Shown in pieces: positions 2,713 to 34,551 of a DNA stretch of 34,551 bases. A program made the position numbers and the translations under genes. The stretch spans positions 1-34,551 of the forward strand of contig PMZA01000005.1 of NCBI GenBank assembly GCA_003170595.1. The letters run 5' to 3'. How positions within the stretch are numbered: position 1 is the first letter of the stretch; every line of letters begins with the position of its first letter. The notes below the pieces were generated by a model. It had not been told where the DNA came from. It did no database searches and saw only the letters and a list, made by a program, of their open reading frames with translations. The stretch comes from Armatimonadota bacterium. Its GTDB lineage: Bacteria > Armatimonadota > Zipacnadia > Zipacnadales > FEN-943.

Positions 2713-3658
2713 GTGCATGAGGTACAGGCTGAGCCGCCCGTACGAAGATCGGGCCAAGCAGGGCCGCTGCCCCGAGGAGTCTCGGTGGGCTGAGCCGGCC
2801 GAATCGCTCTTCTGTGATGTCCGATATACCGATATCGCCTACCAACTGCCCAGCACCATGTCCTATGAGAACAGGCCCTCCTGGTGCGACGGCGAGTGGT
2901 TCGTGCCCCCCGAGGGAGACCACGGCGAGTCTCGGATCGATGCCACAAGCAGGGAGTACGTGGGCCACAAATGCCCCTTCAACTCAGCCGATGACTGCCC
3001 GTGGTGGGAGGAGCGGTTGGGATTCCATCTGGAGCAACGGGCTGGCGATCTCTCGGCCGTCGGCTTCCCGAATTCGAACCTCTACCCGGAAGCAGAACTG
3101 CTGCCGCCGGAGATCGCCGAGAAGGCGCTCTGCTACGTGCGCGACTCACTCAAGAGGCCGATGATGTCCAACGTGGTCATCGTCGGGCCGGTCGGTGCAG
3201 GGAAGACCTCCGTCGCCGCCTACCTGGTGGCCGAGCCCGGTTGGGATCCCACGGCGGCGATCCTGGGTGCCCCCATTGCGGACCTGGCGAGCAAGGCGCT
3301 CATGCTCTCCGCCGACGACCTCTTCGAGCGCCTCAACGAGCAGGTGGAGAAGCGGCTCCTCGAGGTACCACTCCTCATCGTGGATGACCTCGGCACGGAG
3401 ATGGCCTCACCCATCGGGGTGCGCAACTGGCACCGTGTCGTGGACCGGCGGTACAACGACAAGCTGCCCATCATCGTGACCACCAATGCGTCCGACGTGG
3501 ACTCCCTGTTCTCGGATGAGCGCACCCGGTCGAGGTTCATGGCCCGCTGCGAGGTCTGGCGGACGGAGCGGGGTGACTTGCGCCCCTGGATCGAGACGAA
3601 ACGCTCGCAGGACGAGGGCCAGACTGAAAGCGAGACTGAGGATGCGACGGAGGACTGA
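2696..3658 (+). CDS. DnaC/IstB-like AAA+ ATPase (putative helicase loader)
   Basis: Walker A GPVGAGKTS, Walker B LLIVDDLGTE, sensor IIVTTNAS. ATG at 2696 (MISKNECM) after GAGGAAG, overlapping the end of the upstream gene. Confidence 0.85.
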   Translation: MISKNECMRYRLSRPYEDRAKQGRCPEESRWAEPAESLFCDVRYTDIAYQLPSTMSYENRPSWCDGEWFVPPEGDHGESRIDATSREYVGHKCPFNSADDCPWWEERLGFHLEQRAGDLSAVGFPNSNLYPEAELLPPEIAEKALCYVRDSLKRPMMSNVVIVGPVGAGKTSVAAYLVAEPGWDPTAAILGAPIADLASKALMLSADDLFERLNEQVEKRLLEVPLLIVDDLGTEMASPIGVRNWHRVVDRRYNDKLPIIVTTNASDVDSLFSDERTRSRFMARCEVWRTERGDLRPWIETKRSQDEGQTESETEDATED

Positions 3659-4054
3659 TCGCCCCGTCTCAGCAGGCCATCCGACAACGGCGGGCGAGGG
3701 GTCGGGTCGTTGTCAGGGACTGAGAGTTGCCCGTGATCGCCCTGCAGGGCTCCCAGACCCTCCAGGAGCCGAGATCTCGGGCCGCCCCTCCTCATCGCTT
3801 GCCCCATCCGATTCCGATGCCCCACAGGACATCCTGGGAGCTCACGAGCCCAGGTGGTTCACCGGCTCGTGGCATCTAGTCGACGGTCGACCTCAGGCGG
3901 ACGGGCTGACCAACATCACCTGCACGGGAGCCCTCCGAACACATCAGACCTCTGACGTGTGGTGAGACCCGGCAAACGGGGGTGGTCATCGGCCCGATCG
4001 GCTCATGCATCCGGCCAAATCCACCCCACGTCATCTGCCACGGGGTGAGGAGAG

Positions 4055-4987
4055 ATGGAAGACACGCCTTTCATACAGAGGTTGAAGCAGAAGCTTTCGG
4101 AGGAGGACCTGGCGGCCGAGACGGTCAAGCGGACCGTGATAGACGCCAACCAGTTCGAGGTTTGGTACCACGGCACGACCGGGCATGACATCGATCCCGA
4201 CGACATGCAGGTCGTCAACGTGGACTTGAGCGAGTTCCGAGGATGGCTGCAGAGGCAGGACATGAAGCCGTCGAGCGTCCGGCGCAAGTTCGCCAGCCTG
4301 CGAAAGGCCTTCATGCTACTCGCACCGGAGTCGGCCCTGCGACTTCGCTGGCCGAAGCTCCCGCAGGCGCAGGTGGCGGCTCCCTCGGGTCTCACCCGCA
4401 ACGAGCGCAACTCCATCCTGCGGGCCTGCGAGCAGCTGTCGGCTCGGGATGCCCTAGTCGTGGAGCTCGCCCTCTTCACGGGTGCGAGGTCGTCGAGCAT
4501 CGCCAGCATCCGCATGGCGGACATCGAGGCCGGGCAGCGCAGCGGGAGCATCACCTTCCATGGGAAAGGCAACAGGGAATATCGGGTGCCCATGAACCGG
4601 GAGGTGCGGGAGGCTCTGGCCAAGTACTTGGCCGAGCGCCCGCCCGTAGTGCATGACTACCTCCTGGTTCAGGAGCGCTGGCCGTACGAGCGGCTGTCCC
4701 GGTGGGTCTTACATGACATCGTCCACCGACGGCTGACCAAGCACCTCCCGCCCGACGTGGCCAAGAGGATGAAGGGGCTGCATGCATTTCGGCATGACCT
4801 GGCCCGCCGCCTTCTTTCCGGCGACGAGGGCAGGCACGCCCCGATCCCGGTCGGGGACGTCGCCGCCATCCTCGGCCATGCGGACGTCAGGACCACCGCC
4901 GGGATTTATGCCAGGCCCTCGCCGGAGGACATGAAAAGGGCGCTCGACCGGATCGCCGGGGAGGAGGACGAGGAAGACAGCGACTGA
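4055..4987 (+). CDS. Tyrosine recombinase / integrase
   Basis: Catalytic motifs: R in LFTGARSSSIASIR, HAFRHDLARR (HxxR), LGHADVRTTAGIYARP (H...Y). Confidence 0.92.
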   Translation: MEDTPFIQRLKQKLSEEDLAAETVKRTVIDANQFEVWYHGTTGHDIDPDDMQVVNVDLSEFRGWLQRQDMKPSSVRRKFASLRKAFMLLAPESALRLRWPKLPQAQVAAPSGLTRNERNSILRACEQLSARDALVVELALFTGARSSSIASIRMADIEAGQRSGSITFHGKGNREYRVPMNREVREALAKYLAERPPVVHDYLLVQERWPYERLSRWVLHDIVHRRLTKHLPPDVAKRMKGLHAFRHDLARRLLSGDEGRHAPIPVGDVAAILGHADVRTTAGIYARPSPEDMKRALDRIAGEEDEEDSD

Positions 4988-4991
4988 GACG

Positions 4992-5012
4992 AACCGGGGA
5001 AAGGCCCCAGTT
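4992..5012. repeat. Palindrome family, diverged inverted copy
   Basis: AACCGGGGAAAGGCCCCAGTT, just after the integrase stop. Confidence 0.45.
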
Positions 5013-5013
5013 A

Positions 5014-5049
5014 CGGACGGCGGGACGGTCATTAGGTTCCCGCCGTCCG
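5014..5049 (+). other. Hairpin at recombinase 3' end (11-bp stem, 14-nt loop)
   Basis: CGGACGGCGGG acggtcattaggtt CCCGCCGTCCG, 27 bp after the integrase stop. A diverged second copy is at 14378-14415. Confidence 0.75.
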
Positions 5050-5517
5050 GGTCGTGGCGCATCACCAACTCCCTACCTCCCGGGGCCCCTGTTCTCGAGA
5101 CACGACGCAAGCCGACCGGGGCATTGCACCCATGCTCTGCGAGCGGTCGGTCACGGCATAACCAGTTATCACTTGCCGCGATCGAGGCTCCTGCTGGCCT
5201 CGGCGACGGTGGACTCGATCTTCCGCAGGTGGACGTGCCCGGGGTGGCACGGACGGGAGGTTGAGGTGGCGGCACAGACGCTGACCAGCTCCGAGCGGGA
5301 TCATGCGGCCCAGGCCGTCAAGCGTCACGAGGAACGCCCACGTCCCGTCGACACGGCCGACCTCACCGGCCTTTGCGGTGGTGATCCGGCCGTCATGCTG
5401 CCGATCAGTTCCACCAGTGGCCGCCGAGACCGGTACGGCCTGAGAGCCGATGGACCAAGGAAACACCATTTCCCGGCGGATCCGTAGCGGCCCCCCGGGC
5501 TTGGTTCGCCGGGAACG

Positions 5518-6507
5518 TCATGGGCGATCGAAGCAGTTGACCGACCGCCATTTCACAACATAGGCGTACGAGTTCCCAGCGCCCTGAGAGTAGTTCGGGT
5601 CGTAGACCTGTGGCTGAGTGTAGTAAAGCCCGAACCCGTGAGCTAGGGCGCTCAGCGCCATGCCAAGAGTGTGGGGCTTGGGCCCGAACGGAGCCAGCAC
5701 GAGACGGCCTTTTGCCGCTCCCCATTGCTCACAAACCCTGGAGACCCGCTCAGCGTCCCAAGCTGACACGACGAGGAGGCGCGGGGATGCCTGAGGTGCG
5801 GACGGCATGACTTGCCGCAGCGTCCGCCACGTCCGGATGCTCCCGATACCGTTGGGCGGATAGGGGAGTATGCATTTCACGTCTTCTGCTTTGACTTCCC
5901 CCGAGAACATATCGAATAGACTGGCCACGCTCAGTGGCTCGAAGCCGACTGAGATGACTATCCCTCCCACCTCCTTGTGCCCTACGGCGTAGCCCGGCAA
6001 GAGGTCACACTGTAGCGGGTTGAGGGCCAACTGATGAGCCGTGTAGGACTGGGGTGCCACCGAGGTGTAGGTCACGATAAGGCTATGGATTGCTTCGGAG
6101 CGCACGAAGTGTTTCAGTAGAAAACAGAAGAAGCGCTTTGGCATGGAGCTTATGTCTAGGATCACGGCGCGGCCGTCGGCCTCGTCCACTAACCAGCGAC
6201 CGCAGTCGAGAAGCTCATCCTCAGACGCCAGAAGCTCTGCCTCTCTAGGGGTGACTCCTACCCCGGCCGCCTCAAGCCTTTCGCGGTTGGCCTCGGTCTT
6301 CTGGCGACACAAGTCGGTGAAATTGGGATACTGGCCGGGCGGGTCGTTGACCTGCAGGAGATCGAGCCCTTGGCCCCCTGGGGCCGCCATGCGAATCGGG
6401 ACGCGTGTGCATCTCTCCTCTGAGCCTAACGTCCCTACTACCAGGTAGGGCAAGTCTCGAATGAACACGTTGCGCACGAATTCCAGCTTCCCACCAGGCA
6501 GCCTCAT
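5518..6507 (-). CDS. Uncharacterised 329-aa protein, fourth gene of the methylase/PRTase/ATPase operon
   Basis: ATGA overlap with the upstream ATPase gene (ATG at 6507, TGA 6506-6504). Motif AVILDISSMPKRFFCFLLKHF; no family assigned with confidence. Confidence 0.8.
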   Translation of the reverse strand: MRLPGGKLEFVRNVFIRDLPYLVVGTLGSEERCTRVPIRMAAPGGQGLDLLQVNDPPGQYPNFTDLCRQKTEANRERLEAAGVGVTPREAELLASEDELLDCGRWLVDEADGRAVILDISSMPKRFFCFLLKHFVRSEAIHSLIVTYTSVAPQSYTAHQLALNPLQCDLLPGYAVGHKEVGGIVISVGFEPLSVASLFDMFSGEVKAEDVKCILPYPPNGIGSIRTWRTLRQVMPSAPQASPRLLVVSAWDAERVSRVCEQWGAAKGRLVLAPFGPKPHTLGMALSALAHGFGLYYTQPQVYDPNYSQGAGNSYAYVVKWRSVNCFDRP

Positions 6508-8549
6508 TCGAGATCACCCAAGCTCATCTGCTGTTCCTGGAGATGCTCAGCCCTGTCGGTTCCTTGGCGGAGTCCGCGTCGTGCCAAGGCGATCTCCCTA
6601 TCCTCGAAGATCCACTGCCAGACTTCCTCAACCTTGGCGTAGTAAGGCTCTTTGACTCGGCTGTACGGTATCCCAGTGACTGGCGACAGGAGCGGGTGTA
6701 AGTAGAACTTCCTTCGCTGGGGTTTGCCCTTCACCTTGGGGGTGTGACGTCGCTCCTCGAAGTACCCCCAGCCTACGCCCTCCTCCAGAAAGTCGGACAC
6801 CTTCCTGCCCGCAGCCGCAGAATGCAGTTCCAACTCCTCGAGCGAGAAACCACTATGGCCCGGGTTGGACATGGTGCTGCTCTTGACCACTGCCTCCTTC
6901 ACGGCAGCTGCGAACCGGTACGCGAAATCCTCGCGGCGAGGGCCACCTCCGTGCTCCCGAAGGTTTCGCTCTTGCCACTCAACCGACGCATCATAGATGC
7001 CGTAGGTCTGCACCTGTACCGGAAGCGCTTCACTGCCGAGGGGCTCTATCCCCTGCTTGGTGGCGACGTCCCAGATGCGACTACAGATCAGCAAGAACGC
7101 GTAGATGTTGCCTCCGGAGAGATAGACTATCGTGTTCCAGCCATAGTATTTCTTGGTATCGTTCGCCAGAGACGCCAGTCGGAATAGCGCGGCCTGCACC
7201 CTCTCCTTGTGCCACCATCGGCGCATCCAAGGTCGACCTGCCGAAAGCCGGAGGATCTCGTCAACGTCCTGCTTACGGGCAAGGCGTTGTCTGACCCACA
7301 CCGTTGCCAGGAGAGCATCCAGGGGATCTTCGCCAATGCTCACGAGCCGTCCCAGCGCCTCTCTCAGCGCAGGTTCCATGTCCCCCCAAAGCTGCTGACA
7401 CACCCGCTCAGGACCAAGCGAGTATTTTTCGGCCTCCGACTCGGCCGTCCAGCCACCGTACATAGCCTTAAGCTCTTTCGTCTCTAGGCCCCGGCCGCAG
7501 AAGGCCTCGATCCGCTTCTTTGCTACGTCAGCTGCGAACTTCGGGAACACCCATTCTCTCTGGCTTTCCCGCCTCATGAGTATGCGTGACAGGTCGATGC
7601 GCACGTAATCCCTCTGCGCCTCGACGGTCGCTTCCGACCCCCATACTCTCAGCTCCCTTCCCCAGTCGTGGGTCCGTACGCCGAGCTTGTAGAAGGCGAC
7701 CGGATCTCGGCCTTTGATCAAGGTATTGACTACTCGCTGCAGCGTCGCACCTTGACTGCCGCCCAACGCCTGCAGTTCCTCATACTGGTCGATGCAGACG
7801 AAGAGAGGCACGCTTCGTGTGGCAGAGCTGAGTTCCGAGAGCAGGTTGCCCATGCGGTGCAGCGGCTTGTCGGGGAGCGTCTTGGATGCCCATATGTCAT
7901 CAGGCACCGACTCCATGTTCATGTTCAGGAAGCTCTCCCAAGTGGCCAAGCGGGAGCGTGCCCGGCCCAAGAGATCGCCCAAGCTATCCGAGCCGTCGTA
8001 GTAACCGTACCAGCAAGCCCATCCGGCAATGTCGCATGCGACATCTCCAGGACCCCGGCCTGCCTGGTCGATGCCCAACCAGTCTCTGAACTCGCCCTCG
8101 CCGTCCTGGAAGATCAACTGAAGGGCCCGAAGGTACTCTATAAGCAGGTGGTGTGTGAGGAAATCCGCTGCGCAGGCAGCTCCGACCTCCGCTTGGGTAC
8201 CACTTCGAGCCGAACCAGTTCGCCGGCCGAACGTGTGGAAGCCTGCTCGTACCAGGTTGATCGAGATGCCGACAAAGGGTGCCACGTTGGCCAGCGCCCC
8301 AGGAGGGGACCCATGTTTCTTCAGCCAGTTGTTCATCACGACATACCGGATCAGGTTCAGGAGCATAGTCTTGCCAGAGCTGAGTGCGCCTGTCAGGACG
8401 ACGTTCTTCGGCTCGAACAGACTGAGAGTCTCCCCAATCAGAATCTCCGGGCTGAAAAGCTCGCCGTACTCAGGAAGATCGATGAGCTCGGTTGCCATGG
8501 CGTCCACAAAGGGGTTCCTGACAGCCCGATCGTCCGATCCCATGATCAT
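6504..8549 (-). CDS. P-loop ATPase (ORC/CDC6- or STAND-like) with probable C-terminal winged-helix region
   Basis: Walker A LTGALSSGKTMLLNLIRY, Walker B-like VPLFVCIDQYEELQAL; C-terminal KVKGKPQRRKFYLHPLLSPVTGIPYSRVKEPYY. ATGA overlap with the upstream stop supports a start at 8549 (MIMGSDDRAVRNP) rather than 8609. Confidence 0.82.
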   Translation of the reverse strand: MIMGSDDRAVRNPFVDAMATELIDLPEYGELFSPEILIGETLSLFEPKNVVLTGALSSGKTMLLNLIRYVVMNNWLKKHGSPPGALANVAPFVGISINLVRAGFHTFGRRTGSARSGTQAEVGAACAADFLTHHLLIEYLRALQLIFQDGEGEFRDWLGIDQAGRGPGDVACDIAGWACWYGYYDGSDSLGDLLGRARSRLATWESFLNMNMESVPDDIWASKTLPDKPLHRMGNLLSELSSATRSVPLFVCIDQYEELQALGGSQGATLQRVVNTLIKGRDPVAFYKLGVRTHDWGRELRVWGSEATVEAQRDYVRIDLSRILMRRESQREWVFPKFAADVAKKRIEAFCGRGLETKELKAMYGGWTAESEAEKYSLGPERVCQQLWGDMEPALREALGRLVSIGEDPLDALLATVWVRQRLARKQDVDEILRLSAGRPWMRRWWHKERVQAALFRLASLANDTKKYYGWNTIVYLSGGNIYAFLLICSRIWDVATKQGIEPLGSEALPVQVQTYGIYDASVEWQERNLREHGGGPRREDFAYRFAAAVKEAVVKSSTMSNPGHSGFSLEELELHSAAAGRKVSDFLEEGVGWGYFEERRHTPKVKGKPQRRKFYLHPLLSPVTGIPYSRVKEPYYAKVEEVWQWIFEDREIALARRGLRQGTDRAEHLQEQQMSLGDLE

Positions 8550-9547
8550 TTCCCCCCAGCGTGCGGGATTCGCCGGAACAGCGGATACCAGCTCGGAGCT
8601 TCGTGCCATATGAGTGGCAACGTGTTGTTCGGCGTGCTATAGCAGGGCACCACGAGAGCACCTGAGTCTTTGTAGCCGAAGGGGCCGTAAGGGGCTTCGT
8701 CGAGGTCATCAAGCCGCTCCATGACCCGCTCGGCTGACGTCTCGACTATCGAGCGAAAGGTTGGCCAGTCTGGGAGTTCCCCGGGCGTAGGGTTGGGCCT
8801 AACACAAAGCTGATCCGGCACCACAACAACAGGCTCAATCCGCACTCCCTCGATGGATCCGAGCTTGTTGGCTCCCGTCTCAAGCATCACCAAGGGGACA
8901 AAAATGCACGGCTGGTCCGGCCGCAGTCGGGCAGCCACCTTCTTGAGGCACCCGGCGGCTTGCGTGCCAGTGCCGACGAAATCCTCCATCACTATGATGC
9001 CGACCTTCTTCTCCGCTTCGGCCTGGGCCAGGGCCGCCTCTGGGGCGGGGCGCAGTTGCAGAGGCCTTGGAGCGACGATCTGGTTCTCCTTGAGGAACTC
9101 GCCGACCGCGCAGCTTTCGGTAATGTGGAACCATGCATGGTTCGCCAGTAGCTCGCGCAGTACCGATGGCCAGGACGGATCCAGCAGATCGTCGCCAGTC
9201 TTCCGTTGTTCCTCCACAATCCAAGGAACAATGACACCCCTGAGTGCTTCCCGATAGAGCGAATCCCGTTCATCACGGCTGACGAAGTGAATGTAGGCAA
9301 CCATCCTTAGCAGAGCCTGGCGCTGTTCGGGTTCTGGGAGATTGCCGAGCCATTTCTCCAGGCGCACATCGAACTCGCCGTCCTCAGACGATGCACTGTG
9401 GTCGCAGTACCTAAGTTCGGCGTGATAGAGAAGCTCGTCAAGCAAGTGGCGAAATGACGATGGGATATAGCCGCTCTTCTCGTCCAGTGGCGAGTTATCC
9501 CATTCAAGCGCCCACTGGTAGAGCTGGTTCTTGGGCGTCATACGCAT
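8546..9547 (-). CDS. Phosphoribosyltransferase-like protein (PRTase-CE-type)
   Basis: PRPP-loop-like motif KVGIIVMEDFVGTGTQAAGCLKKVA. Start at 9547 (MRMTPKNQLYQWALEWDNSPLDEKSGYIPSS) after a G-rich SD; the upstream extension to 9706 overlaps the methylase gene. Confidence 0.7.
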   Translation of the reverse strand: MRMTPKNQLYQWALEWDNSPLDEKSGYIPSSFRHLLDELLYHAELRYCDHSASSEDGEFDVRLEKWLGNLPEPEQRQALLRMVAYIHFVSRDERDSLYREALRGVIVPWIVEEQRKTGDDLLDPSWPSVLRELLANHAWFHITESCAVGEFLKENQIVAPRPLQLRPAPEAALAQAEAEKKVGIIVMEDFVGTGTQAAGCLKKVAARLRPDQPCIFVPLVMLETGANKLGSIEGVRIEPVVVVPDQLCVRPNPTPGELPDWPTFRSIVETSAERVMERLDDLDEAPYGPFGYKDSGALVVPCYSTPNNTLPLIWHEAPSWYPLFRRIPHAGGK

Positions 9548-9558
9548 CCCCCCCAGGG

Positions 9559-10701
9559 CTATCTCTCCGCGACAAAGACTCGCTCGACCATATCTCGCTG
9601 AGAGTGGCCATTGGAGTTGGCGAGGGCGTTGAGGTAGCGCCTGCCTCCAACTACTCGGTGAACACTCCTGTGCGTGATCCTCAGACCAACTTGCCTCGAG
9701 CGGCATATGTCGGCTAGCAGGTCACCGGTTCTTATGACGTCGGTGCGGCGCTCACCCTTGCTAGTCGTCGTGTGGCGGACGTCGCCCGCTATACAGACCA
9801 GTTTACCACTCCTCCTCAATGCCTTCGCTATCGCTGCGAACGCCTCCGTGAGGAGATCCCTGTAACGGTCGATGCTTTGCGTCTGGATATACTGCGCCCT
9901 GATGGTTGGGTAGCTGCGGTTGAGAAGCCACAGGCGCAACCGATTGTCCTTAGCGTACGTCTGAGCGGCGAGATATGGTGGTGACGTAACAACCAGATCC
10001 ACCCGCCCCGTCAACTCGGGGAAAGCCGTCGCGACAGCTGCCGCTGGAGCTTCCATCACATCGCCCGCTACTGATGGAGGCAACGGATCTCGAAAGCACC
10101 TAGCTGCCTTGGCCAATAGGCACTCTTGCACGCTGCGCAGGGGTGCAGTGAGACCATGCTCCTGCGAGTACCGCTGGACGTACTGCGGCGACATCGAGTA
10201 AGCATGTGACGAGGGTAGCGACAAAGAGTAAGATGCGTGGCCGTGAAGGATTCCCAGAAGAAGACCTAGAGCGACTGTGGCACAGCTCCTCGTGGCACGT
10301 CGCCCGAGATCGACGTCGTGTAGGAGCGCATCCCGCACAGATAGGATTTGGGAAAGCGTTGCAGGGTGGAAGAAAATGCGAACCTCGTCAGGCACGTCAG
10401 CGCAGTCCCCGTCGTCGGTTGGCAGACGGCGGATGTACGACTCAACGGCCCGGACATCGGTGGCGAGCAGCTTGGCCCTGCTGCAGATGACCGCCTCGGG
10501 CGCAACGTCGAGCCCATAGGCAGGACGGCCGAGAAGGCGCGCAGCCAGAATCGACGTACCTTTCCCGCAAAATGGATCCAGCACCACACCGCCGGGTCTA
10601 CCGAAGCGCCTGACCAGACCATAGGGCACGTGAAGTGGGAAAGACCCCGTCCGGGCCATCATCTCCTGCATCGAGTGGTCATACCGATCTGCGGTTGGCA
10701 T
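9559..10701 (-). CDS. DNA (N4/N6) methylase
   Basis: SAM-binding motif VVLDPFCGKGTSILAARLLGR; catalytic VVTSPPYLAAQTYAKDNRLRLW. Order motif I before SPPY. Start 10701 (MPTADRYDHSMQEMM) or 10761. Confidence 0.85.
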   Translation of the reverse strand: MPTADRYDHSMQEMMARTGSFPLHVPYGLVRRFGRPGGVVLDPFCGKGTSILAARLLGRPAYGLDVAPEAVICSRAKLLATDVRAVESYIRRLPTDDGDCADVPDEVRIFFHPATLSQILSVRDALLHDVDLGRRATRSCATVALGLLLGILHGHASYSLSLPSSHAYSMSPQYVQRYSQEHGLTAPLRSVQECLLAKAARCFRDPLPPSVAGDVMEAPAAAVATAFPELTGRVDLVVTSPPYLAAQTYAKDNRLRLWLLNRSYPTIRAQYIQTQSIDRYRDLLTEAFAAIAKALRRSGKLVCIAGDVRHTTTSKGERRTDVIRTGDLLADICRSRQVGLRITHRSVHRVVGGRRYLNALANSNGHSQRDMVERVFVAER

Positions 10702-11150
10702 CTTCTCTCGTCGTTGGGCAGGCACTGAGTCGGGGCAGCAACCACGGCCGAAGTCGCCCACCGACCTTGATATGGCAGCACTGTACCGTGGCCCCCAAAA
10801 GGCTGCCCGCGCGTTGGCAGGCTCTTCTGTTCCTTCCCTGGTTCTCTAGCAGGACCTCCGTAACATCGATGGGCCACGGCTACTCTCGAGCTGGCCTGCC
10901 CCCATTGGCGGTACAAGTTGCTACGTCAGACACAGCGCGGTTGCGGCCCTGGGCGACAGGCGGGCCAAGGCAACGTATGGATCCGAAAGCATACCCTCCC
11001 CCGGGCCAGGCGGATAGTGGCCTCACGAATCGCGCAGCCCCAGCTTGTCGTGACGCCTTCGCCAGCGCTCGCCTCCCAACTTCACCACCCGACTAGAAGC
11101 GGCTCGTTCTGCGCCCTTCCGCCCGTCGGCGGAGACCTCCGGTCACGTGG

Positions 11151-11173
11151 CAACTGGGGAAGGCCTCCCCAGT
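11151..11173. repeat. Palindrome family, copy 4
   Basis: CAACTGGGGAAGGCCTCCCCAGT. Confidence 0.6.
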
Positions 11174-11225
11174 AGTGCCCTCGCCCCCGCCTGACCCCTC
11201 CCGCCGGGTCATGTTGCGGTGAGGG

Positions 11226-11250
11226 CGGCAATTCTGATTGTCGTTGATCA
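11226..11250 (+). repeat. Same repeat, copy b
   Basis: CGGCAATTCTGATTGTCGTTGATCA. Confidence 0.75.
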
Positions 11251-11318
11251 GGCAAGGTCGGTCGGAGTCCGTGACGGCACGCCCCTTTTACCGTCCGAAC
11301 CGAATCGGTTCCGGCATC

Positions 11319-11832
11319 TCATGCATCCCCCGACCAGCCCGCAGGGCCCTCCTGCGTGACCCCGCCTGCGCTCCTATGATCTGCCGCCATCCCTCCCCCG
11401 CTGGCTCGCCCGGCCGCCCTTGCGATAGCGACCTCTATGACCTGCACCATGACGTGACCCGGATCGCCCTCGCCGACCCATTCGGCACCCGGCACGGCTG
11501 GGAAGAACCAGCGCATCCCCAGCAGCTCGTGCGCCTTCATGTAGTCGAACCGCATGTCCCACCAATGGTTGAGGATCGCCTCCACCTTCTCGCAGACGGG
11601 ACGAACCTGCCCGTTCACCCTCACGCCCTTGATCCTGTGGTGCTCCTCGCAGTGAATCAGGTCATTCATGGTGAGCCTGGCCGCATCCTCGAGGACGATC
11701 CACGTGCAGTTGATCAGGCTGCACAGGGCATGGTTCCTGACTTCGATCAGCAGTCGGATCAACCCATCTTCCACCATCTTCCACCATCTGATCCAGCGCG
11801 TCCTGCGTGATTGCGCTCTCCCGTTTACTCAT
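11319..11832 (-). pseudogene. Small uncharacterised gene with a frameshift caused by a 10-bp tandem duplication (ORF track shows only 11319-11777)
   Basis: Upstream ATG at 11832 with GAAGGAC SD encodes MSKRESAITQDALDQMVEDG and then shifts frame at ATGGTGGAAG x2. Removing one unit joins it in frame to VEDGLIRLLIEVRNHALC... Confidence 0.6.
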
Positions 11833-11946
11833 GTCCTTCGCCGCTTTGCGTTCTCACTCATCGATCCAGTCATCGAACCATCTCCCGAGCTGGCGGCGTC
11901 GGACTCGATCTGCCAGAACTCGTAGGTGTCGGGTTCCGGGCCTCGG

Positions 11947-12945
11947 TCATGGTGCGGTGATCGGCTTTGAGCGAGTCCAGAGCACCTCACCGCACTCGTC
12001 GCAGCTGACGTCCAGCATGACGGTCTCGTCCGAGAAGACCTCCACGCTCTCCAGGCCGTAGGCCAGCGGCGCCTCTGGGTCGTCCCGGGTTATCTGGCTC
12101 GCATGCCTGACCAGCGTGTCGGCTGTCAGGTCGTCACCGCCGCACACGGGGCAGTGCTCCGGCAGCCACTCCGGCTCGCCGACCCGGTCCTCCCGGATCC
12201 CATACCCGTTGGTCGTGGCCTGCCACGCCTTGCCCTCGTCGTGGTCGTCGTCCACCTCGACGACTGGCACCCGGAGCCTGATCTGGCGGCCCTCGCGGTC
12301 GCGTAGGATCATCGTGGCCCAGCGGGTGACCTGCCCGTAGTCGGGCGGGATCGCCTCGTACGACTCGCCAAACAGGCCCGGGTTGATGAAGCACCCGCCG
12401 CAGCATTCACCCTCGCCGATCCAGTCAGCATCCAGGTTGAGGGATAGCCCCCAGGGCTTCACCGGGTCCTCCTTGCGGCGCAGGACGAACTCGGGCACCG
12501 GCCCCAGCTTCGACCGCACCTCGTCACGCCGGCGCCGGTGCGCCTCGAGCGGGTCCCGCACGCCGTGCCGCAGATACCGGGCGATGTGCTCCGGGCATAG
12601 GCCGTCGTCGGACCAATCCTCTATCTCTTCTGCGCCAGGCCATCCCTCGGCTTCAGCGCCCTGGGCGTCTGCGAGGACCCGTGCTACGGACAAGCCGCCT
12701 CTCGCCGTGAAACTATGTCGCAGAAAGCAGGCAGCATGGCCGGGGCCCATCAGGCACGTCAGGGCGGCCTCGGCAGCGGGATCATCCCACGGCGAATCCG
12801 ACTCCGGTGATTCGCCCTCAATGGGCTCCCACAGGCAGCGGTCGCAGACGAGCACACCCTCGTAACCCGCCTTGACGGTCCTCTCGCCGCGAGCTTCGGT
12901 CCTCCCACAAAGGCTGCAAATCCTCACACCATCGCTGTCTCTCAC
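11947..12945 (-). CDS. Uncharacterised protein with two CxxC pairs (zinc-ribbon-like)
   Basis: CSLCGR...CDRC near the N-terminus and CPVCGG...CDEC near the C-terminus. GTG at 12945 follows AGGAGG at good spacing; ORF track uses 12954. Confidence 0.65.
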   Translation of the reverse strand: MRDSDGVRICSLCGRTEARGERTVKAGYEGVLVCDRCLWEPIEGESPESDSPWDDPAAEAALTCLMGPGHAACFLRHSFTARGGLSVARVLADAQGAEAEGWPGAEEIEDWSDDGLCPEHIARYLRHGVRDPLEAHRRRRDEVRSKLGPVPEFVLRRKEDPVKPWGLSLNLDADWIGEGECCGGCFINPGLFGESYEAIPPDYGQVTRWATMILRDREGRQIRLRVPVVEVDDDHDEGKAWQATTNGYGIREDRVGEPEWLPEHCPVCGGDDLTADTLVRHASQITRDDPEAPLAYGLESVEVFSDETVMLDVSCDECGEVLWTRSKPITAP

Positions 12946-14640: not shown

Positions 14641-16668
14641 CTATTCGAAGTCCGGGCCCGAACTCTCCTCCAGTTGTATCGCCAGCGACAATTGTGCAGG
14701 ACACCCTCGGTGGTCCCCCGCTGCAAGCGGACATGGCTCTCCCTGAAGCCTAGCCAGTATGCAGCACGGCTCCGCTGCCTTGTGGAGAATGAGCAGCTTC
14801 TCTCTGGATCGTGAGCACCCGACCAACAGGAGATTGCGGATGGCTTCACAAGCGGTGCCGTCGGCGCTCGGCTTCAGGTGGCGGGTATCCAGGCTTGCGC
14901 CACAGACGAAGGTGTAGTCGAACTCCCTACCCTTCGCAGCGTGCATCGTTGCCAACGTGACCCATGAGCGGGTCCGTCTCCGTCGTTCTCTCGCCACCGC
15001 GCTCTCGACAGCCCTCCAGGCTGCCGCACTGACATCCTCAAGCGTCCCTCCCGGATTGCGCGTGACGAAGCCCTCCAGGTCCCCGGTCCATCGGGCAAGC
15101 GGCTCGTCGAGAAACGAATCGGATGTCCAGATGGATACGCCCCGGCGGCTGTTCATGGCCTTTCGGATACCGACAGCCGCGTCGCTGACAGCCCGCATGG
15201 CTTCGAAAGGGGCTAAGCCGCACGAGAGTGCCTCGCCAATGGTCTTGGCGACCTTCGCCTGTCTCTGCCCGTTCCCGCGTTTCAGAGGCTGGGCCGTCGA
15301 GCCGAACCAAGGCCCATGGGCATCCTTGACTGTTACACGGCGCATCTGTTCCAGCGCATCGCCGGCAAGATGTCTGGCCTCGTCGACGGACCTGAGTCCC
15401 AGGACACCCTCCATGAGATAAGCCAGCGCCGCCAGGAACACGCCGACCTCTTCTTCAAGGCCGACGATTGTGTGCCGCAGAGCTACCCCGCCATAGCCCT
15501 GCCTCAAGGCTTGGGAGACGGCTGCAAGCAACGCCCAGGTCGGGCATAGTAGCCCCACTCGCTTGCCGACTCCAAGCGCATCACGAATTTCGCCTTTCAT
15601 CCCGCTGACGTACGACACCGGCCACTCTCCATCAGCAGAACCCGGGTGCTCGCCGCGGGCCTCCTCTATCGACCGCACCTGGATGCACGCTCCAAGTGCA
15701 TCCAGCCCGGATGCCGGACCGGCCGTGCTGCAGGCCTGCCTGATGGCGTCAGCGACTGCCTTGAGGCCTGGGGACGCCTCAGTGCGGGGGACCTCGGGCA
15801 GACGGAACCCGTCAAGCACTTCGGGCTCTCGCTCGCTCTTCAGACGTGAGAGTCGGACCTCCGGATCCGCACCTCGCCACAGATAGACTGCCTGATCAGG
15901 ATCGCACATGCAGACGAGTGTCGAGTCGTGTGCCAAGGCCTTGATGAACTCCCATTCAACCCCGTTCGTGTCCTGAAACTCGTCAACGAAGATGAAAGGG
16001 TATCGTGCGCCCATGTGGCGGCGGACCTTGCTCGAACCGGTCAGTGTTAGGTGGGCGAAGTACGGCCAGCTGTCATAGTGAAGCAGGCCGTCGCGATGAT
16101 GCCTGCCCAGCGTGTCCGCCGCTGCCTGAAGTGTGTCGAAGGAGCAAGCACGAACCCGTTGACCGTCCATGAGTCCAGTCACGATGCTTGTGGCGTTAGC
16201 GGCCTCCCACTGCTTGGCGCGGTCCTTCTTTCCCCGCGCGTACGAGGCCTTGGTCTCGTCGTTGATTTGGCAGAGGGCAGCATCGACCTCGTGCGGTAGC
16301 CATGTCCGCCACCGCCTGGGCACCCCACAGTAGCGGACGTAGCCGTCCAAGAGCCGCCGATAAAGCGAGTGGTAGTTAAGGACCGCCACTTGTGATGTTC
16401 GGGCGCTGCTCTCCGTTCGGGCATCCCTGACCTGCAGGGCGAGTTGCTCAGCCGCACTGACGCTGAAGGTAAGCACAAGCGCGCTCTGTTCCGCAGGTAG
16501 ACGTTCCGCTGCCTCGAGGGCGAGTCTGGCCGTCAGCCAGGTCTTGCCAGAGCCGGGGCCGCCTTGGATGAGCACCGTGCGATGTCCCCGATCGAAGAGT
16601 GCCGAGCGGATATCACTGATTGCTTCCTCGTTCCATTTCTTGTTGGGAGATGACACTTGAGCCGTCAC
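14641..16668 (-). CDS. gajB-like: UvrD/Rep-like helicase, GajB-like (Gabija-type)
   Basis: Walker A VLIQGGPGSGKTWLTARLAL, FIFVDEFQDTNGVEW, DPDQAVYLWRGA, TLATMHAAKGREFDYTFV. GTG at 16668 forms a GTGA overlap with the upstream stop; the ORF-track extension to 16887 overlaps the nuclease gene. Confidence 0.85.
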   Translation of the reverse strand: MTAQVSSPNKKWNEEAISDIRSALFDRGHRTVLIQGGPGSGKTWLTARLALEAAERLPAEQSALVLTFSVSAAEQLALQVRDARTESSARTSQVAVLNYHSLYRRLLDGYVRYCGVPRRWRTWLPHEVDAALCQINDETKASYARGKKDRAKQWEAANATSIVTGLMDGQRVRACSFDTLQAAADTLGRHHRDGLLHYDSWPYFAHLTLTGSSKVRRHMGARYPFIFVDEFQDTNGVEWEFIKALAHDSTLVCMCDPDQAVYLWRGADPEVRLSRLKSEREPEVLDGFRLPEVPRTEASPGLKAVADAIRQACSTAGPASGLDALGACIQVRSIEEARGEHPGSADGEWPVSYVSGMKGEIRDALGVGKRVGLLCPTWALLAAVSQALRQGYGGVALRHTIVGLEEEVGVFLAALAYLMEGVLGLRSVDEARHLAGDALEQMRRVTVKDAHGPWFGSTAQPLKRGNGQRQAKVAKTIGEALSCGLAPFEAMRAVSDAAVGIRKAMNSRRGVSIWTSDSFLDEPLARWTGDLEGFVTRNPGGTLEDVSAAAWRAVESAVARERRRRTRSWVTLATMHAAKGREFDYTFVCGASLDTRHLKPSADGTACEAIRNLLLVGCSRSREKLLILHKAAEPCCILARLQGEPCPLAAGDHRGCPAQLSLAIQLEESSGPDFE

Positions 16669-18680
16669 CGAATCGAGAGCGAAATGATTTTCCTGCCCTC
16701 CGAGGCCGTCATACTGCAGGTAATGAAGCAATGAAGGTTCTCGAACAGGCAGCGGATGCCGGGAGGCACGCCGCCGGCGTCGACACAAGCTTGCGCCCAG
16801 ATCCTCCCGTACCTTGCGCTCTTGGCGAACACATGCTGATCGTCGGTGCCATCGCCCCGCTTGCCGCGACACCGATCGGCGAACCAATCACGAACGGCTT
16901 CGGAGACATCCTGACGTGCCTGGCCACATAAGTTCACCACGCATTCGATGACCGCACCGTCCGCTGCCTTCGATCCATCCGCTCCCGGCAAATGCTCCCC
17001 CAGATGCCTTGGAAGGCCCTTGCGTACCCATTCTCCGAACGAGCCGCCCTCCGGGGGAACGTAGATCTCAGACCAAGCCGTCAGCACTCGTCTGAGCACT
17101 TCCTCCGGCATAGCAACCGTCATCATGCCTTCGAAATCCCGGCCCGGATCCTCGTCGGGCCAATGCATGGCGAGGTCGGCGACGCGCTCGATCAATGCTT
17201 GCTGGTCCGCGTGTCGTCCGCCTTTGCCGCCTGCATTGGGGTCAAGATCGTAGAGCGCCACCACCTTGATGCCGTAACTCCGCAAGACCCGGGCGATAGG
17301 TGCAATGTCGGTGATGCCCCCGGCACTAATGAGCGCCACATCCGCGGCGTCAAGCCCGCGGTAGCTTCCGACCGTCTTGGCCGCCCAACAGTCAAATACC
17401 GGAAGAGCTCCGGCTTCGGTCGAGCCCTCGACCACTAGTGCTGCCCTGGCGAAGAGGGCCGACGAACAGACATCCCAGTAGCGTTGGGCGTTCTTTCTGA
17501 CCTGCTCCGCCTCCACGCAGCCCGCTTCAGAGGGAACCGTCCTCGCAGTCAACTCACCGTCTCGGTTGTCAATCCGCCATACCTCTTGGGGGCGGCAGGC
17601 TTGCACGATGTCCGCCGAGTGGGTGGCTATGAAAGCCTGGGGGCGGTCCGAGTCGATCCCTTCCGCCAGGCCATGGAGCATCGTTCGCTGCGCCTGGGCG
17701 TGGAGCCCGACCTCCGGTTCGTCGATCGTCAAGACCTGGGCACCCCGTACGCCTTCAGCTCCTGCCTTGATCTCGGCGAAGGCTGCCCGTGCCGCGATAG
17801 CGATGGCTCTCTGCATTCCAGCGCCTTGACGACTGAGCGGAATGCGTTGTCCCGACTCGCCAAAACCCAGCTCCATCATCCTCTGGGCCCAAGCCTCAGT
17901 GACTGCTGCGGTGATCCCAAGCTTGATGTCTCCCGCAGCTGAGGGCAAGAGCCGGCCAACTTGCTTGGAGATCTGCGACGCCAGCTCGTTCAGCCCATCT
18001 CCGGACCCGCTTCCGCTGGCGAACCCCTCGGCCTGGGCGACCAGGCTGTCGATGAAGGCAGGGATACGGTCCTCCCGGCGAGGGTCCCAACCAGCCGCCC
18101 GCGCAGCCCTCGCGAGCTGCGATCTGGTGGACAGGCTGCCCACCTCCCAGAGGGCTTCGTTGTATGGGGCGTCCCAGAAACCGAAGGCCTGCCGCTGTCG
18201 TTGAGCAACGCGCCTGCAGTCGGATTGGCCTGGTGGGTCGAACTTCGGAAAGAACCATACTGCGCGGTCCTCGGCCTCGGGCCGATCCGGCTGATAGAAG
18301 AGCGCCACTCGGAGAATGCAAGGGTCCTCATCCAAACCGGCAAGATCTGCGTCAGCCGGCCCCTCGGCCCAGGAGGGCAAGTCGGCGTATGGCTCCTCAA
18401 GTTCCGGGAACACGGCCCATTCCTGCTTAGACGGTTCGAGTATCGCGCCGATCTTCACAGTGAGGCCGCGCTCCCGCGTCAAGCCGTAGATGTCATAGCG
18501 GGTGAAGAGGTCCTCACCTCGATAGGCTTGCTCGACACCCAAGAGCAACTTGAGTCCCTCGAGAATGGTCGACTTTCCGGCGTTCGCACGTCCGACCAGC
18601 ACGTTCCGCTGCGGAGCCGGGTGCCAGGTGAACTGTTTGATACCTCGGAAGTTCTCGATGTCCAGCCTGAGGATACGCGT
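16665..18680 (-). CDS. gajA-like: OLD-family ATPase with TOPRIM nuclease, GajA-like (Gabija-type)
   Basis: Frame extends upstream of the track start: TRILRLDIENFRGIKQFTWHPAPQRN-VLVGRANAGKSTILEGLKLLLG. ABC-type signature-like LSRQGAGMQRAIAIA, Walker B VLTIDEPEVGLH, TOPRIM LVVEGSTEAGALPVF and ALYDLDP. Next gene is a UvrD-like helicase. Confidence 0.85.
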   Translation of the reverse strand, partial: TRILRLDIENFRGIKQFTWHPAPQRNVLVGRANAGKSTILEGLKLLLGVEQAYRGEDLFTRYDIYGLTRERGLTVKIGAILEPSKQEWAVFPELEEPYADLPSWAEGPADADLAGLDEDPCILRVALFYQPDRPEAEDRAVWFFPKFDPPGQSDCRRVAQRQRQAFGFWDAPYNEALWEVGSLSTRSQLARAARAAGWDPRREDRIPAFIDSLVAQAEGFASGSGSGDGLNELASQISKQVGRLLPSAAGDIKLGITAAVTEAWAQRMMELGFGESGQRIPLSRQGAGMQRAIAIAARAAFAEIKAGAEGVRGAQVLTIDEPEVGLHAQAQRTMLHGLAEGIDSDRPQAFIATHSADIVQACRPQEVWRIDNRDGELTARTVPSEAGCVEAEQVRKNAQRYWDVCSSALFARAALVVEGSTEAGALPVFDCWAAKTVGSYRGLDAADVALISAGGITDIAPIARVLRSYGIKVVALYDLDPNAGGKGGRHADQQALIERVADLAMHWPDEDPGRDFEGMMTVAMPEEVLRRVLTAWSEIYVPPEGGSFGEWVRKGLPRHLGEHLPGADGSKAADGAVIECVVNLCGQARQDVSEAVRDWFADRCRGKRGDGTDDQHVFAKSARYGRIWAQACVDAGGVPPGIRCLFENLHCFITCSMTASEGRKIISLSIR

Positions 18681-19008: not shown

Positions 19009-22000
19009 ATGGATAGCTCCACAGATCTAGAGGGGCAGGAAGCCCTCCCCAGACATGCCCAGATGGGTCAGCTCCGGGCAGAGCACCTGCGCGTCTACAC
19101 GCTTCTGCAGAACGTTGACGCCCAGTTTGCCGACTTCTACCTCGGTGGGGCGCTCCTCTTGTCATTGGGCCTACCTGACTCGGCCAAGGCGCACTTCCTG
19201 GCCTACGCCGGGCGGGAGGTCTGTGACAGGCTGGATCTTTGCCTGGGCGCAGAGCGCGTCGTAGGGGAAGATGGCAAGATCACCGCTAGCTCCAAGTTCT
19301 CGGGGGTAGTGCAGGCAGGAGAGCACTACCCAGTGGTCGAGGTCTGGGACGATCTGAGACAGGGGTTCAATGCGTCCGCGCATCTGCGAGCTCCGGGCCA
19401 AGCCCCTCCCAGTGCAGACTACTTCGCCGATCTGTTCGACCGGCTTACGAGCGTGTTGCTGTACCTGTTGGAGCCTCACTACGAGACCATCGATGAGCTC
19501 GACGCCGTCTTGGGCCAGGGGGCCCCTGACCCCGAGACCGTGGGCCATCTCGTCGAGATGCTGTCCAGCCCGGCCAAGAGAGCTTACTTCTTTGGTAGGC
19601 TCTCATCGTCAGCTTGGTTGGCTCCGCTCGATCATGAGGGCTTTTTCAGCAGCCCCCCGAACGCGATCCATAATGCTGAGGATGGGACCGTCCGTCTAGT
19701 CGCTTGGCCAGAGGGAAGGTACCTCGCACGGGCAGCTGAGGCAGCGCCGGAAGAGGTCTGCGAGATAGCCGTCCGTCTCATGACCCAGCCTTCGCCTGCG
19801 ATCGACAATCCCTGGGTAGTGAACGTCTTCATTGACGCGGCGATGCTCATGCCCCCTCTCCTTGCATCCGGGATCGCCCACGAGTTGCCTCGGTTCTTCG
19901 GGTTGATCGGGGCCGACTTCATCGTGATGAGGTCAGTCGACCTGATTAGGAAGCTCGCCGATGGCTCCGAACCCGCCGCAGCTCTGAGACTTCTCGACAA
20001 GACTCTCCAATTGCACGCCGAGCCAAGGCCCGGATGGGAGGCGATCGGCGGAGATGCCAATCTGAAGCGGGCCGTGCCTCTCTGCGGCGAATGGGAGTAC
20101 CAGCACATGCTCGACGAGGCAGGTCCGAGCGTGGTGGCCTCGGCTGGGCCGGACGCGATCGCCATGCTGTGCAAGCATCTTGCAGCAGCGGTGTGCATCG
20201 ACCACGGGCGCGGTTCGGGGCGAGGCTCCTATATGTGGCGGCCCGCGATCGCTGGCGGCGGAGACGGCAACGCCGACTGGGTCAAGAACGCGCTGGTGAC
20301 CGCCATACGGGACGGAGCCCAGGCGCTGGTAGATGCTGACCCAGCGTCCGTTGCTTCCATCTTTGATGTCCTGGAGAGGAATAAGTACCCCGTCTTCCGA
20401 CGGATCGAGCTGCACTTGCTTGCCAGCAACTCGCCTCTGGCAGATGACCGATCTCTGGAGCTTCTCACCGATCGCGAGTTGTTTGACGATCACGAAGTGG
20501 CCGAGGAGTATGAAGCCCTGACGGGGCAACGTTTCGGCAGCCTTACGCCAGACCAGAAGGAGATGATCTTGGGTTGGGTGCAGGGCGGCCCGGACGAACA
20601 GCGGATGAGGGACAACTACGAGAAACATACTGGTACTCCAGCTGAGGACGAGATGGTCCAGCGGTGGAGGGAGGAGTGGCAGCTCGAGCGTCTGCGCTCC
20701 ATTCGGGAGTCTCTTCCCGCGGAGTGGACAGAGCGCTACGAGGAACTGGCGGACCGTCACGGCGCTCCGCAGAGCCCGGCAGAGCGCAGGGGTTCCATGC
20801 GCTTCATGTTCGTTGGCCCGGTACCGTTCAGGACCCATGACGAGCTCGGCTCGATGACGGTTGAGGATATCACCACGTTCCTGAAGGCCACTCCAGAGCC
20901 GACCCAAGACTTCCACGCCCCGACCCCCGAGGGTCAGGGCCGCGTTCTGGCTGAGATAGTGAGGTCGCGGCCGCAGGAGTTCGCTGAGCAGGCCCTGCGG
21001 TTTCACGGTCTGCGGCCCACCTACGTCCGGCATCTCATCGAGGGGCTTACCGACGCCTGCAAGCAGGACGTCGTGTTCCCGTGGCCCCCCGTGCTAGAGC
21101 TCTGCCTGTCGGTGGTGCGTGAGCCCCTGCCTCAGACTCTCCCCGGTCCGCGGCCTCATCTGGAGGACGACCCCGACTGGTCGTGGTGCCAGAAGGCGGT
21201 GCCTGGACTAGTCAGGACGGGGCTCCAACGATCAGGAGGCAGCATACCGTTCGACCTCCGCGAACTGGTGTGGCAGTGCCTGGAGCCTTTGGCCAAGCAC
21301 CCGCACCCGACCCCGGAGGACGAGGCGAGCTATGCGAGTATGGGCCCGGCGGGCACTGCCATCAACACTGTTCGAGGGCAGGCACTTGAGGCTGCCCTGG
21401 CCTTTGCGGCCTGGTGTGTCCAGAAGATGCACCCAGAGCAGTCATGTTTCGGCCAGTACGCGGGGGTCATGGATGAGCTTGGTCCTATCAGGGCCGTCCT
21501 AGAGACGCACCTTGACCCGATCCACGAGCCTTCGCCGGCCGTTCACTCAGTGTATGGCAAGTTCTTTCCGCTGCTTGCCTGGATCGACCTCAACTGGGCC
21601 CTAGACAACAGACCTAGGGTATTCCCACCAGACGAACAACTCCGAGACATGCGATCGGCGGCATGGGAAAGCTACCTGCTATTCGGCGGTCTCTATGTTG
21701 GCCTCGTGGATGCCCTGCGGGAGGAGTATGCGTCGGCGTTGGACGAGGTGTGCCAGATCGGGGAAGCGTCTGACGTCGCCGACCGGGGTTCGGCCGGAAG
21801 ACTCGCCGAGCACATCGCGACCATGTACCTTTGGGGCATCGAGACTCTCGCAGGACCGCTTGTGTCGAAGCTATACCACGAGGCCCCTGTGAAGCTTAGG
21901 GCCCATGCCGATAGCTTCCTCGGAAGATCCTTCAACAGAGCGGCCGGAGTGGAGAGGGAGTACCTGGAGCGAGTACTGGCCCTCTGGGAGTGGCGAATCG

Positions 22001-33702: not shown

Positions 33703-34551
33703 GGCCGCACCCCCTCACCGAAGACATCGGGATGCTCAGCGATCTGCTCCTCGAGGCCCCGGTCGTAGCGGATCGTGATGACCCGATATCCGAGTTCCCG
33801 CAGTCTGCGTCGGGCTGCCTCGTCCCTCCCTTGCTGTTGAGGCTGATCGTGCACACTCCCGTCGCAGAACACGCAGACGTGCAGGCCTTCGTAAGCGAAG
33901 TCCGGCGTGCACTCGGCTTCGGGCACGTGCATCTGAGCGTGCGAAGGCAGGCTCCGTCGAGTGCGGTAGAGGTGGTCGATGAACTGCCTCTCAAGGGCCG
34001 ATCGAGAGTCCGTCTCGCTCATCAGCCACTGACACTGCTCGTCGTAGGAGCGTCCGGCTATCTCGACCCGGACCCGCCCGCCCTTCAGGCTTAGCAGAAG
34101 GTCCCGCACGAGGTGTCTATCGAGGAGTCTGTGGTGTCTTTGGTTGTAGTAGGAGAGCAGGCAGTCATAGCAGGCCCTGGCACAGCCGTGCACCTCGTCC
34201 TCGGGCGGCCGCATGTCCTCGCCCGTGTCCGGGTCGAAGTGCATGATCTCCAGGGCCAGCGATGCGACGCCCGAGAGGGCGTCCGGCTCGTCCACCAGAC
34301 GCCTGAGCACTCCCAGCCCTCCCTCGGCCGCTTCCCATATCAGGATTCGACGCCCCAGTCCCTCCCCGATGACTTCCGAGCCCAGCTCGGACGACTCCAC
34401 CTGGTACCGGGCAGCGACCCCGGCGACGAGGGCGTACTGAAGCGTGTAGACGAAGGAGTTGGTGGTCGCCTCGTCATCCGGGTCTCCGATGTCGGGGTGC
34501 ACGAGGACGGCGTTCGAGGTGTTCCTGACGAACAGCCGTACATAGTGGCGG
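33699..34551 (-). CDS. drmB-like: DUF1998 domain plus DUF559/Vsr-like nuclease domain, C-terminal part of DrmB-like protein (5' end outside window)
   Basis: TLQYALVAGVAARYQVESSELGSEVIG...CARACYDCLLSYYNQRHHRLLDR (DUF1998) then CTPDFAYEGLHVCVFCDGSVHDQPQQQGRDEAARRRLRELGYRVITIRYD. Frame stays open to the window edge (RHYVRLFVRNTSNAVLVHPDIGD). Confidence 0.82.
   Translation of the reverse strand, partial: RHYVRLFVRNTSNAVLVHPDIGDPDDEATTNSFVYTLQYALVAGVAARYQVESSELGSEVIGEGLGRRILIWEAAEGGLGVLRRLVDEPDALSGVASLALEIMHFDPDTGEDMRPPEDEVHGCARACYDCLLSYYNQRHHRLLDRHLVRDLLLSLKGGRVRVEIAGRSYDEQCQWLMSETDSRSALERQFIDHLYRTRRSLPSHAQMHVPEAECTPDFAYEGLHVCVFCDGSVHDQPQQQGRDEAARRRLRELGYRVITIRYDRGLEEQIAEHPDVFGEGVRP

What the first reader, a model, noticed from the sequence alone, without database searches (positions are those of the whole stretch)
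5518..10701. Coupled four-gene operon: DNA methylase, PRTase-like protein, ORC/STAND-like ATPase, unknown protein (candidate poorly described defense system)
Genes 2-3 and 3-4 overlap by ATGA and genes 1-2 are 11 bp apart, so the four products are probably co-expressed. A modification methylase with a phosphoribosyltransferase-like putative effector and a sensor-type P-loop ATPase fits a self/non-self system in which the PRTase-like protein would act on nucleotides or nucleic acid. PRTase-CE-type domains have been proposed as conflict-system components; this exact four-gene architecture is not one I can match to a named system.
Basis: partly seen in the sequence, partly recalled or inferred. 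Interest (0 to 1): 0.78.

Follow-up and report, generated by a model that had tools for sequence, protein, structure and literature searches.

The report
Methylase–PRTase–ORC ATPase–CARF defence-like operon
Four overlapping genes form a divergent copy of a widespread but, as far as I could find, experimentally unstudied gene set (DNA methylase, nucleotide-type enzyme, DNA-sensing ATPase, ligand-sensing CARF protein) that probably defends bacteria and archaea against invading DNA by acting on nucleotide pools.

Summary
Four minus-strand genes, coupled by an 11-bp gap and two ATGA overlaps, encode a PF01555 DNA methylase, a PRTase-CE protein, an ORC-CDC6-like ATPase and a 329-aa protein. The co-occurrence is real. 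Of 80 PRTase-CE loci fetched with a PRTase query only, 70 are followed by the ATPase, all 65 that continue have the CARF next, and 60 carry a methylase directly upstream. They span 14 named phyla, three of them archaeal. Slots are modular: methylase (several classes) and effector (PRTase, HD or pyrimidine nucleoside phosphorylase); ATPase+CARF is constant. Unexpectedly, thymidylate synthases (ThyX or unrelated ThyA) and dUTPase recur as neighbours. No PADLOC or NCBIfam system model matches it. Pfam's names (ORC-CDC6-like, PRTase-CE, HD-CE) show that the domains have been recognised computationally; the probable source papers were not readable here. The window copy is a deep outlier (at most 23% identity). 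Most likely: methylation-licensed, ATPase/CARF-gated defence acting on nucleotide pools. Defence and mechanism are inferred, not shown.

The parts
9559..10701 (-). DNA methylase, 380 aa (PF01555; motif I DPFCGKGT at 10555-10578, motif IV SPPY at 9973-9984, suggesting N4-cytosine or N6-adenine methylation)
   Evidence: PDLC03325 2.9e-35; related to the S. meliloti operon MTase, phmmer 1.5e-13; 2zie_A 5e-10
8546..9547 (-). PRTase-CE protein, 333 aa, putative effector
   Evidence: PF24390 1.1e-24; PADLOC PRTase_III-A 1.3e-20; model matches type I PRTases, prob 1.0, low TM
8963..8986 (-). PRPP-binding loop EDFVGTGT of the PRTase; second acidic residue invariant in 76 of 76 system PRTases, first residue nearly always D
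6504..8549 (-). ORC-CDC6-like AAA+ ATPase, 681 aa (Walker A GALSSGKT at 8367-8390; Walker B region FVCIDQYEEL at 7773-7802)
   Evidence: (PF24389 4.7e-34)
5518..6507 (-). CARF protein, 329 aa, two tandem Rossmann-like domains in the model; invariant R32, D118 and K277 at or just after beta strands
   Evidence: PADLOC CARF6 8e-43; pLDDT 79, pTM 0.83; Can1 6sce TM 0.53
8546..8549 (-). ATGA overlap, PRTase stop / ATPase start
6504..6507 (-). ATGA overlap, ATPase stop / CARF start
9548..9558 (-). 11-bp MTase-PRTase intergenic gap
4055..4987 (+). tyrosine recombinase beside the operon (context: mobile island); G+C drops from 0.65 to about 0.59-0.60 over 6001-10000
   Evidence: (PF00589 7.5e-22)

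Best explanation
A four-part anti-invader system. (1) The MTase methylates a short motif so that the host's own DNA is marked as self. (2) The ORC-CDC6-like AAA+ ATPase and the CARF protein form the constant sensing/switch core: the ATPase engages DNA, presumably invading or replicating unmarked DNA, and the CARF pocket adds a nucleotide-ligand checkpoint. (3) When triggered, the core releases the PRTase effector, which acts on (deoxy)nucleotides, most likely to exhaust pyrimidine deoxynucleotide supply and halt replication. In related operons the effector slot holds an HD enzyme or a pyrimidine nucleoside phosphorylase instead, and a thymidylate synthase or dUTPase nearby would buffer or reset the pool. 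Shown here: composition, order, conservation, retained catalytic motifs, modular slots, thymidylate-enzyme association. Inferred: defence function, direction of the signal, PRTase chemistry, self-marking role of the MTase.
For: In 70 of 80 PRTase-CE loci the next gene is the ATPase; CARF follows in 65 of 65 that continue; median gaps -4, +1, -4 bp. Searches from other anchors agree: ORC profile in 291 phylum genomes and CARF profile in 41 order genomes, whose two hits (G000, G022) both sit beside an ORC gene. The methylase slot is filled by different classes: SPPY type, SPPF ~300-aa type, C5, convergent N6-like. The effector slot holds PRTase, HD-CE (six operons) or pyrimidine nucleoside phosphorylase (1brw 1.5e-17). 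The acidic PRPP-loop residue and CARF R32/D118/K277 are invariant. Thymidylate synthases: ThyX is the commonest Pfam family among 107 neighbours (7), with ThyA 2 and dUTPase 2; on the ATPase tree 21 rows need at least 14 changes. PRTase-like proteins act in anti-phage retrons and a DprA-PRTase system (PMC9122126); a weak relative is NCBIfam's DS32_1_antiphage. The window is a defence-rich island: Gabija-like, DpdE-like, DrmMI-like.
Against: No phage test and no activity known. No nuclease, and no proof that the PRTase is toxic. The window has no thymidylate enzyme beside the operon and its genome has no ThyX. Five of 70 operons lack a visible MTase; four of those carry an SIS-HAD protein with PfkB nearby, which looks biosynthetic. 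The window proteins are 23% identical or less to any relative in the trees, so function may have drifted.
Confidence: 0.5

Rival explanations
1. The PRTase is a signal synthase, not the killer: it makes a nucleotide-like messenger from PRPP that the CARF protein senses, a messenger system without a cyclase; the ATPase/CARF complex is then the executor.
For: CARF domains bind nucleotide ligands, and the three invariant CARF residues lie in loops of the kind that bind ligand in Csm6. SIS-HAD and PfkB partners in one subtype look like sugar-phosphate/nucleoside synthesis, as proposed for the PRTases of Ter systems. Real Cas10 is present in only 3 of 29 other host genomes, so a different ligand is needed.
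Against: HD and nucleoside phosphorylase in the same slot are degradative. The CARF protein has no fused effector domain.
Confidence: 0.2
2. A DNA-modification or plasmid/element maintenance system: the operon installs or surveys a DNA modification and the nucleotide enzymes supply or adjust precursors.
For: Methylase in nearly all copies; recurrent thymidylate synthase and dUTPase; carriage on plasmids.
Against: Effector swapping and the retention of CARF and AAA+ in all forms fit a triggered response better; PRTase, HD and phosphorylase do not share one biosynthetic role.
Confidence: 0.12
3. The CARF is driven by cyclic oligoadenylate from the host's own type III CRISPR system, so the operon is an auxiliary of CRISPR.
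For: The window's genome holds a Cas10/Cmr2 with an intact GGDD on another contig.
Against: Only 3 of 29 other host genomes have a real Cas10; the remaining weak hits look like GGDEF-type matches. No Cas families are among the commonest neighbour families.
Confidence: 0.06
4. A retron or ordinary restriction-modification remnant.
For: The PRTase matches PADLOC retron III-A PRTase profiles; a methylase is present.
Against: No reverse transcriptase or known RNA element found in or beside the operon, no restriction nuclease in it, and all four genes intact and conserved as a unit.
Confidence: 0.02

Closest known systems
Pfam ORC-CDC6-like (PF24389) / PRTase-CE (PF24390) / HD-CE (PF24391) families
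   Same: The window's ATPase and PRTase pass the Pfam cut-offs; these families occupy the same operon positions in the relatives examined.
   Different: These are domain families, not a tested system. Their source paper (probably Burroughs & Aravind 2020, recalled from memory) is not held here, so whether the four-gene order was already described could not be checked.
CARF6 group of CARF proteins (PADLOC profiles; probably from Makarova et al. 2020, recalled from memory, not held)
   Same: Gene 4 matches over nearly its full length (PDLC01923, 8e-43); gene 4 of the relatives scanned matches other CARF6 profiles.
   Different: The model shows two clear Rossmann-like domains; the profile label says three CARFs. 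Not tied to Cas10 in most hosts.
Retron type III-A
   Same: PRTase effector of the same broad family (1.3e-20).
   Different: No reverse transcriptase or known RNA element found; a methylase, AAA+ ATPase and CARF protein instead.
DprA-PRTase system (PMC9122126) and DefensePredictor DS-32 (NCBIfam DS32_1/DS32_2)
   Same: PRTase-like protein in an anti-phage system; DS32_1 weakly matches 25 of 56 PRTases of this module. That NCBIfam's DS32 is the DS-32 of the DefensePredictor paper is inferred from the name.
   Different: Only two NCBIfam models (DS32_1, DS32_2) seen; no PRTase here reaches the DS32_1 cut-off (best E 2.5e-8).
Ssp phosphorothioate system and other Orc/Cdc6 conflict systems (PMC10853773)
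   Same: Orc/Cdc6-clade AAA+ ATPase coupled to DNA modification.
   Different: Phosphorothioation and nucleases there; base methylation and nucleotide enzymes here.

Membership tests
ORC-CDC6-like / PRTase-CE / CARF module | PF24389 and PF24390 over cut-off, adjacent, same strand | tested here: met
   coordinates
ORC-CDC6-like / PRTase-CE / CARF module | CARF gene directly after the ATPase | tested here: met
ORC-CDC6-like / PRTase-CE / CARF module | Catalytic motifs kept (PRPP loop, Walker A) | tested here: met
Retron III-A | Reverse transcriptase and retron ncRNA beside the PRTase | tested here: not met
   no RT among Pfam hits of the neighbouring proteins scanned; no Rfam hit 3500-12500
Type II restriction-modification | Cognate restriction endonuclease in the operon | tested here: not met
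   no nuclease among the four genes; a separate Gabija-like pair lies about 4 kb away
CBASS | CD-NTase cyclase | tested here: not met
   SMODS profile: no match in own genome (84.5% complete)
Type III CRISPR CARF accessory | Linked to Cas10, or Cas10 in host | tested here: inconclusive
   own genome has Cas10/Cmr2 on another contig; only 3 of 29 other hosts do
DS-32 anti-phage system | DS32_1 and DS32_2 over NCBIfam cut-offs | tested here: not met
Anti-phage defence system (any) | Protection against phage | not testable with these tools
   needs plating assays

The most novel reading that the evidence does not exclude
A methylation-licensed immune system that works through thymidylate/pyrimidine-deoxynucleotide metabolism: an AAA+/CARF switch controls interchangeable nucleotide enzymes (PRTase, HD, pyrimidine phosphorylase), with system-encoded thymidylate synthase or dUTPase as rescue or reset, and a CARF ligand that is not made by Cas10 or a CD-NTase.
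Probability: 0.25. Interest if true: 0.85.

Novelty: new variant of a known kind. Interest (0 to 1): 0.62.

Why it matters
If the reading holds, a common gene set in bacteria and archaea joins self-marking by DNA methylation to a nucleotide-sensing CARF switch without CRISPR or CBASS, and would be missed by the defence catalogues checked here. The thymidylate-synthase link gives a direct, cheap test (thymidine rescue, dNTP measurement). It also puts the CARF6 group and the defence PRTases, whose ligand and chemistry I found no report of, into one testable operon.

Tried and rejected
Searches with the window CARF or ATPase alone found almost nothing: none in plasmids with CARF, one weak plasmid hit and no phage or viral-contig hit with the ATPase, because this copy is so divergent; family profiles and a PRTase alignment were needed. 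First impression that gene 2 of L036-L038 was a PRTase was wrong: it is HD-CE. A strict PRPP-loop pattern missed 44 of 76 PRTases and was replaced by an alignment. Foldseek top hits of the CARF model by E-value (KCC transporters) have TM below 0.3 and were set aside. A PDB profile search for CARF gave nothing credible and for PRTase nothing. The C-terminal part of the L035 ATPase looked TIR-like by eye but found no support, so it is not claimed. Retron, CBASS and plain R-M were tested and rejected (see membership table). Search of E. coli genomes with one Pseudomonas operon (DNA, distant mode) found nothing. Literature: the probable source papers and related ones (DOI 10.1128/JB.00365-20, 10.1093/nar/gkaa635, 10.1093/nar/gkaa1149, PMC4678834, PMC7498327, PMC7685563) are not held, so prior description of the exact operon cannot be excluded. 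No control set of random flanks was run for the neighbour survey.
Full report
Observation. The four minus-strand genes exist as described: MTase 10701-9559 (380 aa), PRTase 9547-8546 (333 aa), ATPase 8549-6504 (681 aa) and a 329-aa protein 6507-5518. The first junction is an 11-bp gap and the other two are ATGA overlaps. Named motifs are present: DPFCGKGT/SPPY, EDFVGTGT, GALSSGKT. The operon lies in a G+C dip (0.59-0.60 against about 0.65) next to a tyrosine recombinase.

Identity. Pfam gives N6_N4_Mtase, PRTase-CE and ORC-CDC6-like over their cut-offs. An AlphaFold2 model (pLDDT 79, pTM 0.83) shows two tandem Rossmann-like units. Its best global match is the CARF nuclease Can1 (6sce, TM 0.53), with Csm6 also present; the higher-ranked transporters have TM below 0.3. 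R32, D118 and K277 are invariant in all relatives aligned and lie at or just after beta strands, the kind of place where Csm6 binds its ligand (compare PMC7101355). The PRTase model (pLDDT 85) matches uracil, orotate and adenine PRTases with probability near 1 but E of 2e-3 or weaker and low TM: a type I PRTase core with an extra helical N-terminal part.

Is it a unit? A PRTase-only scan of 84,980 species genomes returned 80 loci. Labelled with profiles built here, 70 have the ATPase as next gene; all 65 with sequence beyond it have CARF next (five contigs end); 57 have an N4/N6-type MTase and two a C5 MTase directly upstream. L124 adds one more MTase (PF01555 2.3e-30), making 60 directly upstream. 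Five (L067, L087, L099, L108, L117) have a convergent N6-like MTase after CARF. Five lack one (L083, and the SIS-HAD group L116, L118, L126, L128). Median gaps are -4, +1 and -4 bp. Bias to note: the seed alignment came from ATPase-linked PRTases, so solo PRTases are under-sampled. Independent anchors agree: the ORC profile over 291 phylum genomes found seven genomes over cut-off, six with CARF next and one (L039) at a contig end; the CARF profile over 41 order genomes found two loci, both beside an ORC gene. Plasmids of Sinorhizobium and Rhizobium carry the same order, partly decayed in two. Loci with assigned taxonomy come from 11 bacterial and three archaeal phyla.

Modularity. The MTase slot is filled by an SPPY ~455-aa type, an SPPF ~300-aa type (also PF01555), C5 methylases, or a convergent N6-like enzyme; one of the C5 operons has a Vsr gene next to it (L039). 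The effector slot holds PRTase, HD-CE (six C5 operons) or a pyrimidine nucleoside phosphorylase homologue (L039, 1brw 1.5e-17). MTase type follows the ATPase tree with few changes, i.e. subtypes. The window copy is a deep, long-branched outlier in all three trees, at most 23% identical to any row, so its placement is unsure and it is best called a divergent subtype.

Thymidylate link. Among 107 nearest neighbours the commonest Pfam family is ThyX (7), ahead of integrases (4); ThyA (2), dUTPase (2) and Tn7 TnsE (3) also appear. With wider searches ThyX is beside nine of the 70 PRTase loci (split in L085), five of six HD operons and three plasmid operons; ThyA directly precedes the MTase in L096 and L101 and lies further upstream in L066; dUTPase follows CARF by about 10 bp in L064 and lies between ThyX and the operon in L074; L069 has a MazG-like protein after CARF, by eye. 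Two unrelated thymidylate synthases recruited in different orientations, with at least 14 changes for 21 rows on the ATPase tree, argue for a functional tie. No random-flank control was run. The window lacks this partner and its genome has no ThyX.

Mechanism. Constant ATPase+CARF and interchangeable nucleotide enzymes suggest sensor/switch plus effector. The MTase suggests self-marking. The MTase role, the trigger and the chemistry are inferences. The CARF ligand is unlikely to be Cas10 product in general: real Cas10 occurs in only 3 of 29 other host genomes, although the window's own genome has a Cmr2 with GGDD. No CD-NTase was found in the own genome.

Known or new. PADLOC 2.0 has no model matching the ATPase strongly (LmuB 0.052). 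NCBIfam has none for three of the four window proteins, only weak methylase matches for the MTase, and only a weak relative (DS32_1) for the PRTase family. Pfam's family names show that the domains were recognised computationally, and CARF6 is an established group. I therefore rate it a new variant of a known but, as far as I could find, untested kind, and cannot exclude that the four-gene order is already in a paper or supplement not held here.

Noticed in passing
window 14641-18602 (-): Overlapping GajA/OLD-like (TOPRIM) and GajB/UvrD-like genes, a Gabija-like pair.
   Followed up: partly
window 26705-34502 (-): DrmMI-like Eco57I-type MTase (1417 aa), full-length DpdE-like SNF2 helicase (7e-186) and a DruE-C-terminal/MZB-like protein at the window edge; a DISARM/Dpd-like mixture.
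   Followed up: partly
window 19009-22440 (+): 1143-aa protein with a Dsr1-like match (8e-23) and no Pfam domain.
   Followed up: no
L129 (G000:C352): Cas10/Cmr2 with GGDD and a Cmr3-like neighbour (by eye): type III CRISPR on another contig of the same genome.
   Followed up: partly
L068, L074, L091, L096, L101, L107, L109, L112, L119, L124, L064, L036-L038, L041-L044, L047: Thymidylate synthases (ThyX or ThyA) and dUTPase repeatedly beside the operon.
   Followed up: partly
L040, L116, L118, L126, L128: Subtype without MTase: SIS-HAD-like protein (~630 aa) upstream and a PfkB-family gene nearby.
   Followed up: partly
L039:3-4321: C5 MTase, pyrimidine nucleoside phosphorylase homologue, and an ATPase with an N-terminal protein-kinase-like domain; Vsr beside it.
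   Followed up: partly
L058:6338-7426, L066:6405-7460: AIR-synthase-related (AIRS) protein directly upstream of the MTase; role unknown.
   Followed up: no
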